The notes under the pieces: generated by a model
What the model was told of the DNA's origin: nothing
Databases searched by the model: none
The model's input: only the letters and a program-made list of their open reading frames with translations
Made by a program: the position numbers and the translations under genes
Shown here: piece after piece, positions 2,910 through 44,827 of the stretch
Position numbering within the stretch: the first letter of the stretch is position 1
Layout: every line of letters starts with the position of its first letter
From: Nitrospira sp. MA-1
GTDB lineage: Bacteria > Nitrospirota > Nitrospiria > Nitrospirales > UBA8639
Assembly (NCBI GenBank): GCA_032139905.1
Contig: JAQJDB010000005.1
Span: forward strand, 107,001 to 171,000
DNA: 64,000 nucleotides
Reading direction: 5' to 3'

Positions 2910-3006
2910 CCCCCAATAGCCCAAATAATGTGATAATATAGATTTTGACAAATCACCCCATCTTTTGCTAGCCATTTCAACGACTTACTCCTACCAAAAA
3001 CTTATT

Positions 3007-3033
3007 GTAACATGTCATGTTACGTGTTACAAT
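3007..3033. promoter_or_regulatory. Palindromic operator of the higBA operon
   Basis: The 17-bp palindrome with 8-bp arms GTAACATG/CATGTTAC (one-base spacer, 3007-3023) is followed at once by a further GTGTTAC half-site. The block ends 5 bp before the higB start. Toxin-antitoxin operons are usually repressed by the HTH antitoxin binding such sites, so this is the likely HigA operator. Confidence 0.7.
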
Positions 3034-3038
3034 AACCA

Positions 3039-5219: not shown

Positions 5220-5294
5220 ACAACTCCTTCCTCAGTGCAGTGTTCCAGAGGGTAACAGATTTAATAGACCGCCTAACTTCGATAGGGACATGCC

Positions 5295-5669
5295 TCAGGT
5301 GGGCGGTGCCAAGGAGAGACTTTCTTCGACAAAGTCCAAGATTTGCAATATTTTTTTTCGAAGCTCTGCAAGGTAGGGATCAGGTAACGCACCGAGTTCT
5401 TTGCGAAAGCGTTGATTGTCAATGGCCTTGATTTGATCCACTAAAATGTCAGAGATGGAGGTCAGCCCTGAGACCCCCTGAGGAGTTGATACTCGAAGGG
5501 GAGTTTGAACATCAACCACTTGAGTCGTTAATGGACAAATAAGGGTGGAAAGGTGATAGGGATTCAAGGCATCAGTTTGCACGACGACAACCGGTCGAAC
5601 CTTTCCCGGTTCGGTTCCAATTCGTGGATTCAGGTCCGCCAAATACACATGGCCGTACTGGGGGGTCAT
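5295..5669 (-). CDS. mazF: MazF/PemK-type mRNA interferase toxin
   Basis: This 124-residue protein shows the PemK-like SH3 barrel of MazF: YGHVYLADLNPRIGTEPGKV at the start, then the conserved RPVVVVQTDALN, HLSTLICPLTT and DQIKAIDNQRF segments. MazF enzymes cut single-stranded mRNA at short sequence motifs, using the Arg of the first GxxRPVVV-like block and a Thr in the barrel. The start codon overlaps the antitoxin stop by 4 bp, so the two are translationally coupled. Confidence 0.93.
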   Translation of the reverse strand: MTPQYGHVYLADLNPRIGTEPGKVRPVVVVQTDALNPYHLSTLICPLTTQVVDVQTPLRVSTPQGVSGLTSISDILVDQIKAIDNQRFRKELGALPDPYLAELRKKILQILDFVEESLSLAPPT

Positions 5670-5908
5670 AGATCGCCAGGAAGATCCTCTAGCAGTTCAG
5701 TTTCTTTTAAATAGGCAAGATGTGCGGCGGATACCTGCTGGGAGGCTTTTTGATATTCCTGGGCCAACGCTTTTCTCGCGTAGAGGGCGTTGAAGTGAGC
5801 CAGAGCTTTTCTGATATACAGGTTTCGAGGCATGTTCAAACGTTTTCGAATGGCTTCAGTTTCTTGGTAGGCATGTTCGTCGAGTTTTAGGGATAACACT
5901 TTACTCAT
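5666..5908 (-). CDS. MazF-partner antitoxin, ribbon-helix-helix-like
   Basis: This 80-residue protein precedes and overlaps the mazF-type gene by 4 bp. The N-terminal KVLSLKLDEHAYQETEAIRKRL resembles a ribbon-helix-helix strand and first helix, and MPRNLYIRKALAHFN a second helix. The remainder is a charged helix that would wrap the toxin. A GGGGGGAGA-like ribosome site precedes the ATG. It should neutralise the downstream toxin and repress the operon. The exact antitoxin class is inferred from context. Confidence 0.8.
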   Translation of the reverse strand: MSKVLSLKLDEHAYQETEAIRKRLNMPRNLYIRKALAHFNALYARKALAQEYQKASQQVSAAHLAYLKETELLEDLPGDL

Positions 5909-39287: not shown

Positions 39288-39945
39288 AATTGAGGAATAT
39301 GCCGGCTGTGCGTTTTTTTATTTGATTCAAGTCCTTTATAAACGACTCTTCATCCGCCTAATTGTGTTGTGCGACGATTGATCATAATGGAAGCGATTCA
39401 AAATGTTGGGAATTTAGAAAATTTAACCAAAAGAATTGGAGCGGATTTGCGTTAGGGGTTCAATTGCCTATGCATTGGGATATTTTTGAATGTTGCTGGT
39501 TAAAATTGTTTGAAATAAATTAATGTTACCTTTTAATTATTTGTTACCAATTGGTATCTCTATTTAAGGCAATGTAATTTTTAAATAATTTTATATATAA
39601 TTTTCAAGTGTTTATGATTTTTTGTAAGTAGGATTTTAAGAAAGGGAAATCATTTGAAGGAAATTGTGAATGTTACCATTTTGGATCAATTCATTTTACC
39701 CAAAAGTTAGTTTTTGTATTTTTTATAATTTAAACAAATACTTATGAAATTTTTATAATAATTAAAAAAGGTTCAAATCTTGCTTTTCCTGTTCTTAGTA
39801 TATTTTTAACAAATCATAATTAAGGTTAAGTATTTTAATTGGGCAAATTTCATTCATGTAAAGGAGGTGATAAAGAGTTTTGAATTTGGATTGATGAATT
39901 AAATCATGGACTTAATGTCCTGCACTCACTTAGGAGGTGTAAGCA
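39288..39945. other. AT-rich nxrA leader region, no protein gene seen
   Basis: The 658 bp before nxrA contain long A and T runs (especially 39530-39790), unlike the flanking genes. Several TATAAT-like hexamers occur, but no single promoter stands out. I found no open frame or tRNA. The region probably contains the nxrA promoter and a long 5' untranslated leader. Confidence 0.6.
39861..39896 (+). promoter_or_regulatory. Perfect Shine-Dalgarno site with no long frame, upstream of nxrA
   Basis: AAGGAGGTGA at 39861-39870 is complementary to the 3' end of 16S rRNA. It is followed only by a TTG-initiated frame of four codons (39880-39894) whose stop overlaps an ATG-AAT-TAA. The true nxrA site, AGGAGGTG at 39933-39940, lies 72 bp downstream. 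It may be a leader-peptide or standby ribosome site. Confidence 0.45.
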
Positions 39946-42900
39946 ATGTTTCTTTCTAGACGGCAATTCTTGAAAGTTTCAGCGGGAACGGTAGCTGCAG
40001 TCGCACTGGCCGATAAGGCGCTGGCCTTAACGGCGTTACAGCCAGTCATCGAAGTCGGGAATCCTCTCGGCGAATATCCTGACCGTTCATGGGAGCGGGT
40101 CTACCACGATCAATATCGCTATGACAGTTCGTTTACCTGGTGTTGTTCTCCCAATGACACGCATGCCTGTCGAATCCGGGCGTTTGTCCGAAACGGGGTC
40201 GTCATGCGCGTGGAGCAAAATTACGATCACCAGACCTATGAAGATCTCTATGGTAATCGTGGGACGTTCGCGCATAACCCCCGCATGTGCCTGAAGGGGT
40301 TTACGATGCATCGGCGGGTGTACGGACCGTACCGGCTCAAGGGGCCCTTGATGCGTCGGGGGTGGAAGCAATGGATGGATGACGGGAGCCCGGAGTTCAC
40401 GCCAGCCATTCAGACGAAATACAAATTTAATGCCCGTTATTTGGACGACATGTTGCGGGTGTCCTGGGATACGGCGTTTACCTATTTGGCGAAGGCCATG
40501 ATCATCATCGCCAACCGGTATAGCGGTGAGGCTGGGGCTCGACGGTTGCGGGAGCAAGGCTATCCGCCCGAGATGCTGGAGATGATGAAAGGCTCAGGAG
40601 TTCGAAGCATGAAATTCCGGGCTGGCATGCCTGTTTTGGGAATCATTGGGAAAATGGGCATCACCCGGATGAATGGCGGCTGCGGCGCCTTATTGGATAC
40701 CTACGTACGAAAAGTTACGCCTGAACATGCGCAAGGCGGACGCTACTGGAATAACTATACCTGGCACGGCGACCAGGATCCTTCCCAGCCCTGGTGGAAT
40801 GGGACCCAGAATTGTGACGTGGATTTGAGCGACATGCGCTTCACGAAGTTTAATACCAGTTGGGGCAAGAACTTCGTCGAAAACAAGATGCCGGAAGCCC
40901 ACTGGAAACTTGAATCCATTGAACGTGGTGCGCGTATTGCGGTCATTACCCCGGAATACAATCCGACGGCCTATCGAGCGGACTACTGGATTCCTGTGCG
41001 TCCAGAGTCTGATGCCTCTTTCTTTTTAGGGTCGTGTAAAATGCTTGTAGATGAGGGCTTGTTCGATGCGGATTTTTGTCGGTCCTACACCGATATGCCT
41101 CTCCTGGTCCGGACCGATACCCTGCAGTATTTAGATCCGCGTGATGTGATTAAAGATTATCAGTTCCCCGATTTTTCCAAATCCTATTCGGGCAAAGTGC
41201 AGACGCTGACACCGGCAGAAATCGCGCGGTTAGGTGGCCTCATGGTCTGGGATCTGAACAAGAATCAAGCGGTTCCCATTCATCGTGAATTGGTGGGGTG
41301 GCATTTCAAGAAGAGTGGCATTGACCCGGCCTTGACGGGGACGCACCGGGTGCGTTTGGTCAGTGGGCGGGAAGTGGACGTGATGCCGATTTTCCAAATG
41401 TATCAAGTCCATCTCCAAGACTATGATTTGGATACGGTGCATCAAATCTGTCGGTCTCCCAAAGATTTGATCGTGCGGTGGGCGCGTGATATCGGGACGG
41501 TCAAACCGGCTGCGATTCACAACGGGGAAGGCGTCTGTCATTATTTCCACATGACCCAAAATGGGCGGGCGGCGGCCTTGAACCTCATTTATACGGGGAA
41601 TATTGGGAAATTCGGCAGCGGGTGTCATACCTGGTCCGGGAATTATAAGGCGGGAACCTGGGCGGCGACCCCGTGGGCAGGATCCGGTCTTGGAGTGCAT
41701 ACCGGAGAGGATCCGTTCAAGATTACGACGGACCCCAATGCCCATGGAAAGGAAATTCACGTAAGAAGTTACTATTATGGGGAGGAGCCCGGCTATTGGA
41801 ACCACGGCGATACGGCGTTGATTGTGAATACGCCGAAGTATGGTCGTCGGGTGTTTACAGGCAAAACACACATGCCGACCCCGAGTAAATTCCGGTGGGT
41901 GGCCAATGTCAATATTCTCAATAATGCCAAGCACCATTATGACATGGTCAAGAATGTGGATCCGCATAATGAATGTCTGGTGAATCAAGAAGTCGAGATG
42001 ACGTCGGATGTCAACCATTTCGACGTGTCATTTGCGGTGAATACGTGGATGGAGTTTACCTATCCGGAACATACGGCGACGGTGTCGAATCCCTGGTTCC
42101 AGGTGTGGAAAGGCGGCATCCGGCCGTTGTATGACACACGGAACGATTTGGATACGGTCGCGGGCGTCGCGGCTAAACTCACCGAAATGACGGGGGATGG
42201 GCGGTTCCGCGATTACTTTAAGTTTGTCTATGACAATCGCGTGGACGTGTATCTGCAACGGTTGTTGGATGCGGGCAACTGCTCCTATGGCTATAACGCG
42301 GATACGATGTTGAAGTCGGAAAAGGGCTGGATGGTCATGACCCGGACCTATCCTCGCGTCCCATTGTGGGAAGAAGTCAACGAATCGAAACCGCAGTGGA
42401 CGCGTAGCGGACGCCTGGAAACCTACCGGGTGGAGCCGGAAGCCATTGAATATGGGGAAAACTTCATTGTCCATCGGGAAGGCCCGGAGGCAACCCCGTA
42501 TTTGCCGAATGCGATCATGTCCTCCAATCCGTATATCCGGCCGGATGACTATGGGGTGCCGATCACGGCGCAACATCATGACGACAAAACCATCCGCAAC
42601 ATCAAGTTGCCCTGGTCGGAAATTAAACGGTACGCCAATCCGCTTTGGGAGAAGGGGTATCAGTTCTATTGCGTCACTCCGAAGACCCGGCATCGGGTGC
42701 ATAGCCAATGGTCGGTGAATGACTGGGTGCAGATGTATGAATCCAACTTTGGGGATGCCTATCGGATGGATAAGCGGACGCCAGGAGTTGGCGAGCATCA
42801 AATCCATATCAACCCGGCCGCGGCCAAAGATCGGGGGATCAACGATGGGGACTATGTCTACATCGACGGCAACCCGGTGGACCGGCCGTATCGGGGCTGG

Positions 42901-43383
42901 AAGCCCAGTGACCCGTATTACAAGGTGGCGCGGTTAATGATCCGGGCGAAGTACAACCCGGCGTTCCCGTACCATGTCACGATGGCCAAGCATGCGCCGT
43001 ATGTGTCGACCGCGAAGTCGGTGAAAGGGCATGAAACCCGGCCGGATGGACGGGCGATTGCGCTGGACACGGGCTATCAATCGAACTTCCGGTATGGAGC
43101 GCAGCAGTCGTTTACCCGCAGTTGGCTGATGCCCATGCATCAAACCGACTCGTTGCCGGGCAAACATCCCGTGGGCTGGAAGTTTAAATGGGGCTTTGCG
43201 ATTGACCATCATGCGGTCAATACGACGCCGAAGGAATGTCTGATCCGCATAACCAAGGCGGAAGACGGCGGTATCGGCGGGCGTGGACCGTGGGAGCCGG
43301 TTCGGACCGGGTTTACCCCAGGCCAGGAGAATGAGTTCATGATCAAATGGCTGAAGGGTGATCATATTAAGATTAAAGTGTAA
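39946..43383 (+). CDS. nxrA: Nitrite oxidoreductase catalytic subunit (NxrA)
   Basis: This 1145-residue molybdo-bis(guanine dinucleotide) enzyme oxidises nitrite to nitrate. It begins SRRQFLKVSAG with a twin-arginine motif and a short hydrophobic stretch, so it is exported folded, matching the periplasmic Nitrospira enzyme. Near the N-terminus Cys67, Asp71, Cys75 and Cys115 are spaced like the cluster ligands of NarG-type enzymes, with Asp in one Cys place; this assignment is mine. The rest carries the type II DMSO-reductase-family core and a C-terminal cofactor domain. AGGAGGTG precedes the ATG. G+C and codon use are visibly higher than in the genes around it, as expected for a very highly expressed gene. 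Confidence 0.96.
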   Translation: MFLSRRQFLKVSAGTVAAVALADKALALTALQPVIEVGNPLGEYPDRSWERVYHDQYRYDSSFTWCCSPNDTHACRIRAFVRNGVVMRVEQNYDHQTYEDLYGNRGTFAHNPRMCLKGFTMHRRVYGPYRLKGPLMRRGWKQWMDDGSPEFTPAIQTKYKFNARYLDDMLRVSWDTAFTYLAKAMIIIANRYSGEAGARRLREQGYPPEMLEMMKGSGVRSMKFRAGMPVLGIIGKMGITRMNGGCGALLDTYVRKVTPEHAQGGRYWNNYTWHGDQDPSQPWWNGTQNCDVDLSDMRFTKFNTSWGKNFVENKMPEAHWKLESIERGARIAVITPEYNPTAYRADYWIPVRPESDASFFLGSCKMLVDEGLFDADFCRSYTDMPLLVRTDTLQYLDPRDVIKDYQFPDFSKSYSGKVQTLTPAEIARLGGLMVWDLNKNQAVPIHRELVGWHFKKSGIDPALTGTHRVRLVSGREVDVMPIFQMYQVHLQDYDLDTVHQICRSPKDLIVRWARDIGTVKPAAIHNGEGVCHYFHMTQNGRAAALNLIYTGNIGKFGSGCHTWSGNYKAGTWAATPWAGSGLGVHTGEDPFKITTDPNAHGKEIHVRSYYYGEEPGYWNHGDTALIVNTPKYGRRVFTGKTHMPTPSKFRWVANVNILNNAKHHYDMVKNVDPHNECLVNQEVEMTSDVNHFDVSFAVNTWMEFTYPEHTATVSNPWFQVWKGGIRPLYDTRNDLDTVAGVAAKLTEMTGDGRFRDYFKFVYDNRVDVYLQRLLDAGNCSYGYNADTMLKSEKGWMVMTRTYPRVPLWEEVNESKPQWTRSGRLETYRVEPEAIEYGENFIVHREGPEATPYLPNAIMSSNPYIRPDDYGVPITAQHHDDKTIRNIKLPWSEIKRYANPLWEKGYQFYCVTPKTRHRVHSQWSVNDWVQMYESNFGDAYRMDKRTPGVGEHQIHINPAAAKDRGINDGDYVYIDGNPVDRPYRGWKPSDPYYKVARLMIRAKYNPAFPYHVTMAKHAPYVSTAKSVKGHETRPDGRAIALDTGYQSNFRYGAQQSFTRSWLMPMHQTDSLPGKHPVGWKFKWGFAIDHHAVNTTPKECLIRITKAEDGGIGGRGPWEPVRTGFTPGQENEFMIKWLKGDHIKIKV

Positions 43384-43394
43384 GAACGTGTTCA

Positions 43395-43430
43395 GGGGAG
43401 CCTAAAGAAAGTAATTTCTTTGGGTTCCCC
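43395..43430 (+). promoter_or_regulatory. 16-bp hairpin with GUAA loop between nxrA and nxrB
   Basis: Bases 43395-43410 pair fully with 43415-43430 (two G-U pairs), closed by a GUAA tetraloop of the GNRA type. The stem starts 12 bp after the nxrA stop, and nxrB begins 45 bp later. No T-run follows, so it is not a terminator. It may stabilise or mark the 3' end of processed nxrA mRNA. Confidence 0.7.
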
Positions 43431-43474
43431 ACTCGTTCACTTGATATTTCAAACAACAGAAACGGAGGACGACA

Positions 43475-44764
43475 ATGCCTGAAGTGTATAACTGGCAGTT
43501 AGGACGAAAGATGCTGTATCCGTATGAGGAGCGGCATCCGAAATGGCAGTTTGCGTTTGTCTTTAACATCAACCGGTGTTTGGCATGTCAAACCTGCTCG
43601 ATGGCGGACAAGTCGACGTGGCTGTTCAGCAAAGGGCAGGAATACATGTGGTGGAACAACGTGGAAACGAAGCCGTATGGGGGCTATCCACAATTTTACG
43701 ACGTCAAGATTACGCAGCTCATCGAGCAAGTCAATCCGGGCGGCCAGGTGTGGAACGTGCGGGTGGGCCGCAAGCACCATGCACCGTACGGAGTGTTTGA
43801 AGGGATGACGATCTTTGATGCGGGGGCCAAGATCGGGCAGGCGGCCATTGGCTACATCCCGACCGACCAGGAATGGCGGTTTGTGAATATTTATGAAGAC
43901 ACGGCGACCTCGATGCGGGCGATCGTGGAAGGAGTGGATAAGACGGGGTTCACGAAAGAAGAGCCGTGGAAAATGCAAGGCAGCAGCTTGCCGGAGCATG
44001 AAACGTATTTCTTCTATCTGCAACGCATCTGTAACCACTGTACGTATCCAGGCTGTCTGGCGGCGTGTCCGCGGAAGGCCATCTACAAGCGGCCGGAAGA
44101 CGGGATTGTGTTGATCGACCAGAACCGGTGCCGGGGGTACAAGAAGTGTGTGGAACAATGCCCGTTTAAGAAGCCGATGTACCGGGGCACGACGCGGGTA
44201 AGTGAGAAGTGTATTGCGTGCTATCCGCGGGTCGAGGGCAAAGACCCCCTCACGGGGGGCGAGCCGATGGAAACCCGATGTATGGCGGCGTGCGTGGGTA
44301 AGATCCGGTTGCAAGGGCTGGTGAAGGTGGGCGATGACGGGTTATGGGCGGAAGATCGCTGGAATCCGTTGTACTATGCCATTCGGGTGGAACAAGTGGC
44401 GTTGCCGTTGTATCCGCAATGGGGCACGGAGCCCAATGGCTTCTACATTCCCCCACGCCAAGCCCCACGGGGCTACATCCGGCAGATGTTCGGGCCGGGA
44501 GTGGATAATGCGATAGAGAAGTATCTGGTGCCGAGCCGGGAATTGTTGGCGGTGCTGCAGTTGTGGCGGGCGAGCCAACAGATCATCTTCCGGTATGACG
44601 TGATTCCGGGACCGAAAGTGTTCGAAACCCAAATCCATGGGCGGAAGTTTGAGATGTACAACGACACGGTGTTGGGGTTCAACAAATCGGGCAAGGAAGC
44701 GGTGCGGCAGCAAGTGGAAGAGCCGATTTACATCCGCCCGGCGGAGCGGGTGAACTGGCTGTAA
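43475..44764 (+). CDS. nxrB: Nitrite oxidoreductase iron-sulfur subunit (NxrB)
   Basis: This 429-residue electron-transfer subunit takes electrons from NxrA. Cysteine groups are Cys35/38/41 (CLACQTC), Cys186/189/194/198 (CNHCTYPGCLAAC), Cys219/225/229, Cys246/249 and Cys269/273. Tyr222 stands where a Cys would complete one cluster, fitting a [3Fe-4S] centre, and Asp45 replaces the fourth Cys of the first group. No signal peptide is present, so it is presumably carried out with NxrA through the Tat system. GGAGG lies 7 bases before the ATG. nxrB is widely used as a marker gene for Nitrospira. Confidence 0.97.
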   Translation: MPEVYNWQLGRKMLYPYEERHPKWQFAFVFNINRCLACQTCSMADKSTWLFSKGQEYMWWNNVETKPYGGYPQFYDVKITQLIEQVNPGGQVWNVRVGRKHHAPYGVFEGMTIFDAGAKIGQAAIGYIPTDQEWRFVNIYEDTATSMRAIVEGVDKTGFTKEEPWKMQGSSLPEHETYFFYLQRICNHCTYPGCLAACPRKAIYKRPEDGIVLIDQNRCRGYKKCVEQCPFKKPMYRGTTRVSEKCIACYPRVEGKDPLTGGEPMETRCMAACVGKIRLQGLVKVGDDGLWAEDRWNPLYYAIRVEQVALPLYPQWGTEPNGFYIPPRQAPRGYIRQMFGPGVDNAIEKYLVPSRELLAVLQLWRASQQIIFRYDVIPGPKVFETQIHGRKFEMYNDTVLGFNKSGKEAVRQQVEEPIYIRPAERVNWL

Positions 44765-44790
44765 GCGGAAGCCCAGAGGGGAGACCGAAG

Positions 44791-44827
44791 AGCAGGGGGC
44801 GACAGATGTCGCCCCCTGCTTTTTTTA
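44791..44827 (+). terminator. Strong intrinsic terminator after nxrB
   Basis: AGCAGGGGGCGACA (44791-44804) pairs with TGTCGCCCCCTGCT (44807-44820), followed by a run of seven T. It lies 26 bp after the nxrB stop and should end the nxrAB transcript efficiently. Confidence 0.93.

What the first reader, a model, noticed from the sequence alone, without database searches (positions are those of the whole stretch)
43395..43430. Perfect 16-bp hairpin with GUAA tetraloop between nxrA and nxrB
The nxrA-nxrB gap of about 90 bp holds a stem of 16 consecutive pairs (two G-U) capped by a GNRA-type loop, with no T-run. It could protect the 3' end of processed nxrA mRNA or set the NxrA:NxrB ratio in one of the most abundant proteins of the cell.
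Basis: seen in the sequence. Interest (0 to 1): 0.6.

Follow-up and report, generated by a model that had tools for sequence, protein, structure and literature searches.

The report
nxrA hairpins; sister copies carry antisense
The hairpin between the two main nitrite-oxidation genes is real and is probably an ordinary RNA-protecting structure, but the matching hairpins in the sister copies of the operon carry a sequence that fits, base for base, over the translation start of this copy, so one copy of this key nitrogen-cycle enzyme may silence another by RNA pairing.

Summary
The 16-bp stem with a GUAA loop at 43395-43430 is real, and an outer helix extends it to 43384-43438. It is not a terminator: there is no T-run, and the operon's terminator follows nxrB. 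The spacer folds best of 53 co-directional gaps in 464 kb of this genome. Pairing is kept in five orthologues, but the GUAA loop is not. Unrelated strong hairpins occupy the same place in 33 of 53 spacer clusters of Nitrospirales. The best reading is a 3'-end/processing hairpin of nxrA mRNA. A higher nxrA:nxrB ratio is not supported by published N. moscoviensis RNA-seq.

The larger result came from the sister operons. The same genome has two more nxrAB copies, with ~650-nt spacers that hold a receiver-domain gene. The hairpin straight after nxrA in one of them is complementary to the Shine-Dalgarno and start codon of the window's nxrA (39933-39968): 33 Watson-Crick and 2 G-U of 36, 26 consecutive. 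The other copy's hairpin best fits the second copy's start. Two further genera show the same arrangement (39+1 of 44; 23+4 of 28), with their own Shine-Dalgarno-to-AUG sequences matched. Controls show nothing. I propose cross-paralogue antisense control of nxrA translation; there is no RNA evidence yet.

The parts
39946..43383 (+). nxrA, class I copy (TAT signal MFLSRRQFLK; molybdopterin oxidoreductase)
39933..39968 (+). Shine-Dalgarno (GGAGG 39933-39937), start codon (39946) and first codons of nxrA: proposed target of the hairpin of sister operon IIa (33 WC + 2 GU of 36; 39942-39967 perfect, 26 nt)
43384..43438 (+). whole stem-loop: outer helix 43384-43390 with 43432-43438 (one mismatch in this copy) plus the core
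43395..43430 (+). core hairpin, 16 pairs (14 WC + 2 GU), GUAA loop, no U-run
43439..43474 (+). nxrB leader with Shine-Dalgarno GGAGG (43464-43468), left free by the hairpin; nearly invariant in orthologues
43475..44764 (+). nxrB (iron-sulfur beta subunit)
44787..44824 (+). 17-pair hairpin ending in a T-run: intrinsic terminator of the operon

Best explanation
The hairpin belongs to a family of strong stem-loops that Nitrospirales place directly after the nxrA stop codon. In the window's copy (class I) the stem-loop is compact and pairs with no nxrA start. It most likely works as an RNA 3'-end barrier: after cleavage in the spacer it blocks 3'-to-5' exonucleases and so protects nxrA mRNA, without stopping transcription and without covering the nxrB ribosome site. 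In the two sister operons of the same genome the hairpin at the same place has an enlarged loop antisense to nxrA starts. Copy IIa's loop and 3' arm pair with the Shine-Dalgarno and start codon of the window's nxrA. Copy IIb's loop pairs best with the start of IIa. When a sister operon is transcribed, its hairpin, still in the mRNA or released by cleavage, would block ribosome binding on the target nxrA, giving the order IIb over IIa over I. Shown: the structures, the complementarity, its specificity and its recurrence in three genera. Inferred: transcription of the loop as RNA, its release, the repression, and the protective role of the class I stem.
For: Recurrence: 33 of 53 spacer clusters have MFE <= -25 and z < -2, against 4 of 53 control gaps at z < -2, one of which is the window spacer itself. 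No U-run in 36 of 38 stems, while a real terminator follows nxrB. Orthologues keep the stem with two double-sided changes, and one-sided changes give only G-U. The core is unique in the genome. RNase E/G and PNPase homologues are present. Antisense: IIa hairpin to class I start 36 nt (33 WC + 2 GU), target -13..+22; G041 44 nt (39 + 1), -13..+30; G048 28 nt (23 + 4), -13..+14. Shuffle z is 17.4, 21.9 and 10.9. The genus-specific SD-AUG 8-mers TGTAAGCA, TGCATGCA and TATCTGCA are matched at 6 WC + 1 GU, 8 and 8 of 8. Net cofold gain is -22.0 (IIa to I) and -16.6 (IIb to IIa), against -4 to -6 for own starts and -0.6 for the class I hairpin. The class I start is the best target in about 480 kb of own DNA, 32.2 against 17.2 for the next non-nxr place.
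Against: No RNA data: neither 3' ends at the stem nor a released antisense species has been seen. Covariation within the class I orthologues is modest (5 sequences; 23 of 500 shuffles reach the score). Two long-spacer hairpins (G020 L171, G048 L149) have no nxrA-start target. Short-spacer Nitrospirales do without the hairpin. In G048 the loop does not prefer its own genus's start by energy. Own-start pairing of IIa is weaker but not nil.
Confidence: 0.55

Rival explanations
1. The class I hairpin makes nxrA mRNA more abundant than nxrB mRNA and so sets the subunit ratio.
For: Position at the 3' end of the upstream gene without a U-run matches the Clostridium cellulolyticum stem-loops (PMC4423207) and malEFG (PMC5927463).
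Against: In N. moscoviensis the hairpin-bearing locus has nxrA/nxrB RPKM 13,027/18,744 while the hairpin-less copies have 486/311, 179/59 and 19/9 (spacers). Correcting for uniquely mappable length does not reverse this. The copy differs in sequence and species from the window.
Confidence: 0.2
2. An intrinsic terminator or attenuator between nxrA and nxrB.
For: Long G+C-rich stem; some sister-operon hairpins are followed by U-runs (G002 IIb, G048 x2826).
Against: No U-run in the window (ACTCGTTC follows); the scan finds no terminator there; a full terminator lies after nxrB; nxrB transcripts are not below nxrA at the N. moscoviensis hairpin locus.
Confidence: 0.05
3. A mobile or REP-like palindrome without a role at this place.
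For: Several Nitrospiraceae spacers are built of CGTGA(A/C)G-type heptamers that look like dispersed repeats.
Against: The window core occurs once in 4.76 Mb; the orthologous stem is maintained; strong stems recur at this place in clusters of unrelated sequence.
Confidence: 0.1
4. The antisense loops of the sister operons are relics of an inverted duplication of the nxrA 5' end, kept by chance or gene conversion, without function.
For: nxr paralogues recombine (N. moscoviensis lost a copy, PMC6606698); own-start matches also exist.
Against: Three genera with very different spacers keep only this stretch; the non-coding SD-AUG segment is matched genus by genus; pairing always begins at the Shine-Dalgarno, -13; the better match is to another paralogue, not to the cis gene.
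Confidence: 0.12
5. The class I hairpin is itself the body of a small RNA acting on a target outside nxr.
For: Sister hairpins look like antisense RNAs, and 3'-UTR-derived small RNAs are common (PMC9438474).
Against: Short loops without conserved sequence; no outstanding complementary site in about 480 kb of own DNA apart from itself (best 17.2).
Confidence: 0.08

Closest known systems
Intercistronic stabilizing stem-loops / selective RNA processing and stabilization (cip-cel operon of Clostridium cellulolyticum, PMC4423207; malEFG and pufBALMX cited in PMC5927463)
   Same: Strong stem-loop right after the upstream gene of an operon for a multi-subunit complex; mostly no U-run; positions recur in relatives with changing sequence.
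   Different: No processing site or half-life is known for nxr; N. moscoviensis data do not show excess of the upstream transcript.
NarS and other 3'-UTR-derived base-pairing small RNAs (PMC9438474)
   Same: An RNA segment after the stop codon of one nitrogen-metabolism gene pairs with the start region of another mRNA.
   Different: Here the segment lies inside an operon, between nxrA and a receiver gene plus nxrB; the target is a paralogue of the gene it follows; the match is 28-44 nt. Release and any chaperone need are unknown.
Intrinsic terminator
   Same: G+C-rich hairpin after a gene.
   Different: No U-run; transcription evidently continues to nxrB.

Membership tests
intercistronic stabilizing stem-loop (SRPS type) | stable stem-loop at the 3' end of the upstream cistron within one operon | tested here: met
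intercistronic stabilizing stem-loop (SRPS type) | not a rho-independent terminator (no U-run) | tested here: met
intercistronic stabilizing stem-loop (SRPS type) | processing site next to the stem and longer half-life of the upstream segment | not testable with these tools
   no RNA-end or decay data for this organism
intercistronic stabilizing stem-loop (SRPS type) | upstream transcript exceeds downstream transcript | tested here: inconclusive
   only a relative's published RPKM, which points the other way
trans-acting antisense RNA derived from a 3' UTR (NarS type), for the sister-operon hairpins | specific complementarity to the ribosome-binding region of a target mRNA, conserved in relatives | tested here: met
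trans-acting antisense RNA derived from a 3' UTR (NarS type), for the sister-operon hairpins | accumulates as a separate short RNA and represses the target | not testable with these tools
   needs RNA-seq, Northern blot or reporters
trans-acting antisense RNA (NarS type), for the window's own hairpin | complementarity to a target start region | tested here: not met
   class I spacers: z 0.5 or lower against all nxrA starts tested (one search agrees)
intrinsic terminator | hairpin followed by a U-run | tested here: not met
REP-like dispersed palindrome | many copies in the genome | tested here: not met

The most novel reading that the evidence does not exclude
The nxrAB paralogues of marine-type Nitrospira (genus g1 and two further genera of the family) are ordered by a riboregulatory chain: the hairpin after nxrA of copy IIb silences nxrA of IIa, and that of IIa silences nxrA of the class I copy (the window), by antisense pairing over the Shine-Dalgarno and start codon, so that switching on one nitrite oxidoreductase switches another off at translation.
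Probability: 0.5. Interest if true: 0.85.

Novelty: new variant of a known kind. Interest (0 to 1): 0.72.

Why it matters
Nitrospira carry several nearly identical copies of the enzyme that makes most nitrate in many habitats. Their different use is documented (N. moscoviensis expresses one copy strongly, PMC6606698; N. marina changes NxrA copies with oxygen, PMC8115632), but the mechanism of choice is open. A sequence-encoded antisense between copies would give a direct, testable answer in organisms with few genetic tools. I know of no described case in which an intra-operon hairpin is aimed at a paralogue of the gene it follows; the two literature searches made for nxr found none.

Tried and rejected
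Rfam scan of the window: only a tRNA. Terminator reading of the window hairpin: no T-run. REP-like repeat: the core is unique. Importance of the GUAA/GNRA loop: not conserved. Autoregulation of each copy by its own hairpin: weaker pairing than to the other paralogue. Window hairpin as antisense to any nxrA start: z 0.5 or lower. Antisense in Nitrospiraceae proper and N. moscoviensis: none. G020's long hairpin: my guess at a start-codon target found only the hairpin itself. Plasmid collection: no match. First alignment of orthologues used wrong coordinates and was redone; one orthologue (G001) was left out of the pair count because its 5' arm is shifted by one base. A sigma-70 promoter for nxrB in the spacer: none found.

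Full report
OBSERVATION. The window carries nxrA (39946-43383) and nxrB (43475-44764), separated by 91 nt. At 43395-43430 there are 16 consecutive pairs, 14 Watson-Crick and two G-U, around GUAA, and no T-run follows. The spacer folds at -35.5 kcal/mol against -18.4 for shuffles, z -5.5, and an outer helix GAACG/CGUUC extends the structure to 43384-43438. In the whole window only one perfect stem (loops 3-8) is longer: the 17-pair hairpin with a T-run at 44787-44824 right after nxrB, the operon's terminator. In 464 kb of the same genome the spacer has the best folding z of 53 co-directional gaps of 60-200 nt.

CONSERVATION OF THE WINDOW HAIRPIN. Six distinct 91-nt orthologous spacers were found in the genus. 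Five align without gaps. On the extended structure 95% of cells pair; two pairs changed on both sides (G-C to A-U at columns 15/44; C-G to U-A at 20/39); seven one-sided changes all give G-U on the + strand and none gives A-C. The shuffle control is only modestly exceeded (23 of 500), so covariation alone is suggestive. The direction of the wobbles points to the + strand RNA as the selected molecule. Over unrelated clusters G-U again exceeds A-C, 43 to 23 at one threshold (one-sided p 0.009; 0.03-0.06 at other thresholds). The loop varies in length and sequence, so the GNRA loop is incidental. The last 36 nt before nxrB are nearly invariant, and the nxrB Shine-Dalgarno stays outside the stem.

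RECURRENCE. I extracted 141 distinct nxrA-nxrB spacers of Nitrospirales and clustered those of 20 nt or more at 70% identity into 53 groups. Thirty-three groups have a strong structure (MFE at most -25 and z below -2): 1 of 11 with spacers under 80 nt, and 32 of 42 above. The stems mostly begin a few nt to about 20 nt after the nxrA stop, have mostly unrelated sequences, and only 2 of 38 are followed by a U-run. Short spacers, as in genus g2 and N. moscoviensis copies 1-3, have none. A hairpin at this place is thus favoured but dispensable. The window's core occurs once in the genome, so it is not a dispersed repeat. The genome has RNase E/G and PNPase homologues, the enzymes such a stem would face.

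DOES IT SET THE SUBUNIT RATIO? N. moscoviensis gives a natural comparison. Its copies 1-3 share a hairpin-less 38-nt spacer; copies 4 and 5 share an 86-nt hairpin spacer. Published RPKM (PMC6606698 Table 2) are nxrA/nxrB 486/311, 179/59 and 19/9 for copies 1-3, and 13,027/18,744 for the fused 4/5 locus. The reads were unambiguous ones only. The uniquely mappable fractions change the ratios by my arithmetic to about 1.4, 2.1 and 1.5 against 0.5-0.7, not the order. The hairpin locus is the highly expressed one, but nxrA does not exceed nxrB there. This is one culture of another species, with large standard deviations, so it only lowers the ratio hypothesis. It also argues against termination at the hairpin.

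SISTER OPERONS. The genome has three nxrAB copies. The window's I call class I. Copy IIb lies at G000:C5:653.6-659 kb. Copy IIa starts at C5:672,755 and continues on C7, an assembly break inferred from complete relatives G001 and G002. IIa and IIb have spacers of about 650 nt with a response-regulator receiver gene (PF00072; the domain search was run on the IIa copy and on copies of two other genera) and a long hairpin directly after nxrA. While testing a conserved stretch in that hairpin's loop I found that it is the reverse complement of the start of the window's nxrA.

THE ANTISENSE MATCH. The IIa hairpin pairs with the class I nxrA start over 36 nt without gaps, 33 Watson-Crick and 2 G-U, from the Shine-Dalgarno (-13) to +22, with 26 consecutive pairs. 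Its own start matches less well: 22 + 2 of 25, without the Shine-Dalgarno segment, and with a mismatch where IIa reads GACGTC and class I GACGGC. The IIb loop carries the complement of GACGTC and best fits the IIa start by cofold. It does not fit its own start, which differs (ATGTTTGTAACAAAAAGG). Net cofold energies after paying for unfolding are -22.0 for IIa to I, -16.6 for IIb to IIa, -9.0 for IIb to I, -4 to -6 for own starts, and -0.6 for the class I hairpin. G001 and G002 repeat the pattern.

OTHER GENERA. In G041 (genus g9) the copy with a 157-nt spacer pairs with the class I-like start over 44 nt (39 + 1). In G048 (genus g10) one copy with a 512-nt spacer pairs over 28 nt (23 + 4). Both begin at -13. 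Against shuffled spacers the scores are z 21.9 and 10.9, and 17.4 for the own genome. Class I spacers, eight Nitrospiraceae genomes and N. moscoviensis all give z at or below 1.9. The SD-to-AUG 8-mers, which code for nothing, are TGTAAGCA, TGCATGCA and TATCTGCA, and each is matched by the loop of its own genome (6 + 1 G-U, 8 and 8 of 8). In about 480 kb of own DNA the class I nxrA start is the best target of the IIa loop, 32.2 against 17.2 for the next place outside nxr. Two long-spacer hairpins, G020 and the second long one of G048, have no such target.

MECHANISM. The simplest account is a two-part module. The stem after nxrA is a 3'-end handle that protects or delimits nxrA mRNA. In class II copies the handle has been enlarged to carry an antisense segment that can cover the ribosome-binding site of another paralogue. 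Transcription of IIb would then lower NxrA from IIa, and transcription of IIa would lower NxrA from class I. The class I hairpin is the plain handle. Steps shown: sequence, structure, specificity, recurrence. Steps inferred: RNA presence, release, repression, protection.

COMPARISON. For the class I hairpin the nearest kind is the intercistronic stabilizing stem-loop (PMC4423207; PMC5927463). For the class II hairpins it is the 3'-UTR-derived base-pairing RNA such as NarS (PMC9438474). What differs is the place inside an operon and the aim at a paralogue of the gene it follows. Literature searches combining nitrite oxidoreductase and Nitrospira with stem-loop or antisense RNA gave no report of either; the single hit of the second search, by title and abstract, is about metabolite release. 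Three-copy use in N. marina changes with oxygen (PMC8115632), which gives the proposal a physiological setting.

VERDICT. The finding as written is a correct observation of a new member of a known kind, of moderate interest. What it led to, a conserved cross-paralogue antisense match on the start of the window's nxrA, is a new variant of a known kind and of high interest if confirmed.

Noticed in passing
L007:244-630, L006 about 5250-5672, L152:2062-2511, L148:1894-2289: A small stand-alone response-regulator receiver protein (PF00072) is encoded between nxrA and nxrB in class II operons of three genera; it has no output domain.
   Followed up: partly
L012/L159 and L176 spacers, L148 spacer: Some class II hairpins are followed by long U-runs and could also act as partial terminators before the receiver gene and nxrB.
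   Followed up: no
L086, L113, L121, L271, L284 and other Nitrospiraceae spacers: Spacers built of CGTGA(A/C)G-type heptamers in both orientations form very stable stems; they look like a dispersed palindromic repeat of Nitrospira.
   Followed up: no
window 44787-44824: 17-pair terminator hairpin with T-run directly after nxrB, the longest perfect stem of the window.
   Followed up: yes
window 3002-3035; L197:18161-18193; L188:17136-17229: Other co-directional gaps of this genome with unusually strong hairpins, possible further intercistronic elements.
   Followed up: no
L171 (G020:C43) spacer, first 75 nt: Long hairpin after nxrA whose loop differs from all others (contains the complement of AATTTATGATAATTCCTGCC); no target found in that genome.
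   Followed up: partly
G000:C5 end and C7 start: The assembly breaks inside the nxrA of copy IIa: its first 764 codons or so end contig C5 and its tail begins contig C7.
   Followed up: partly
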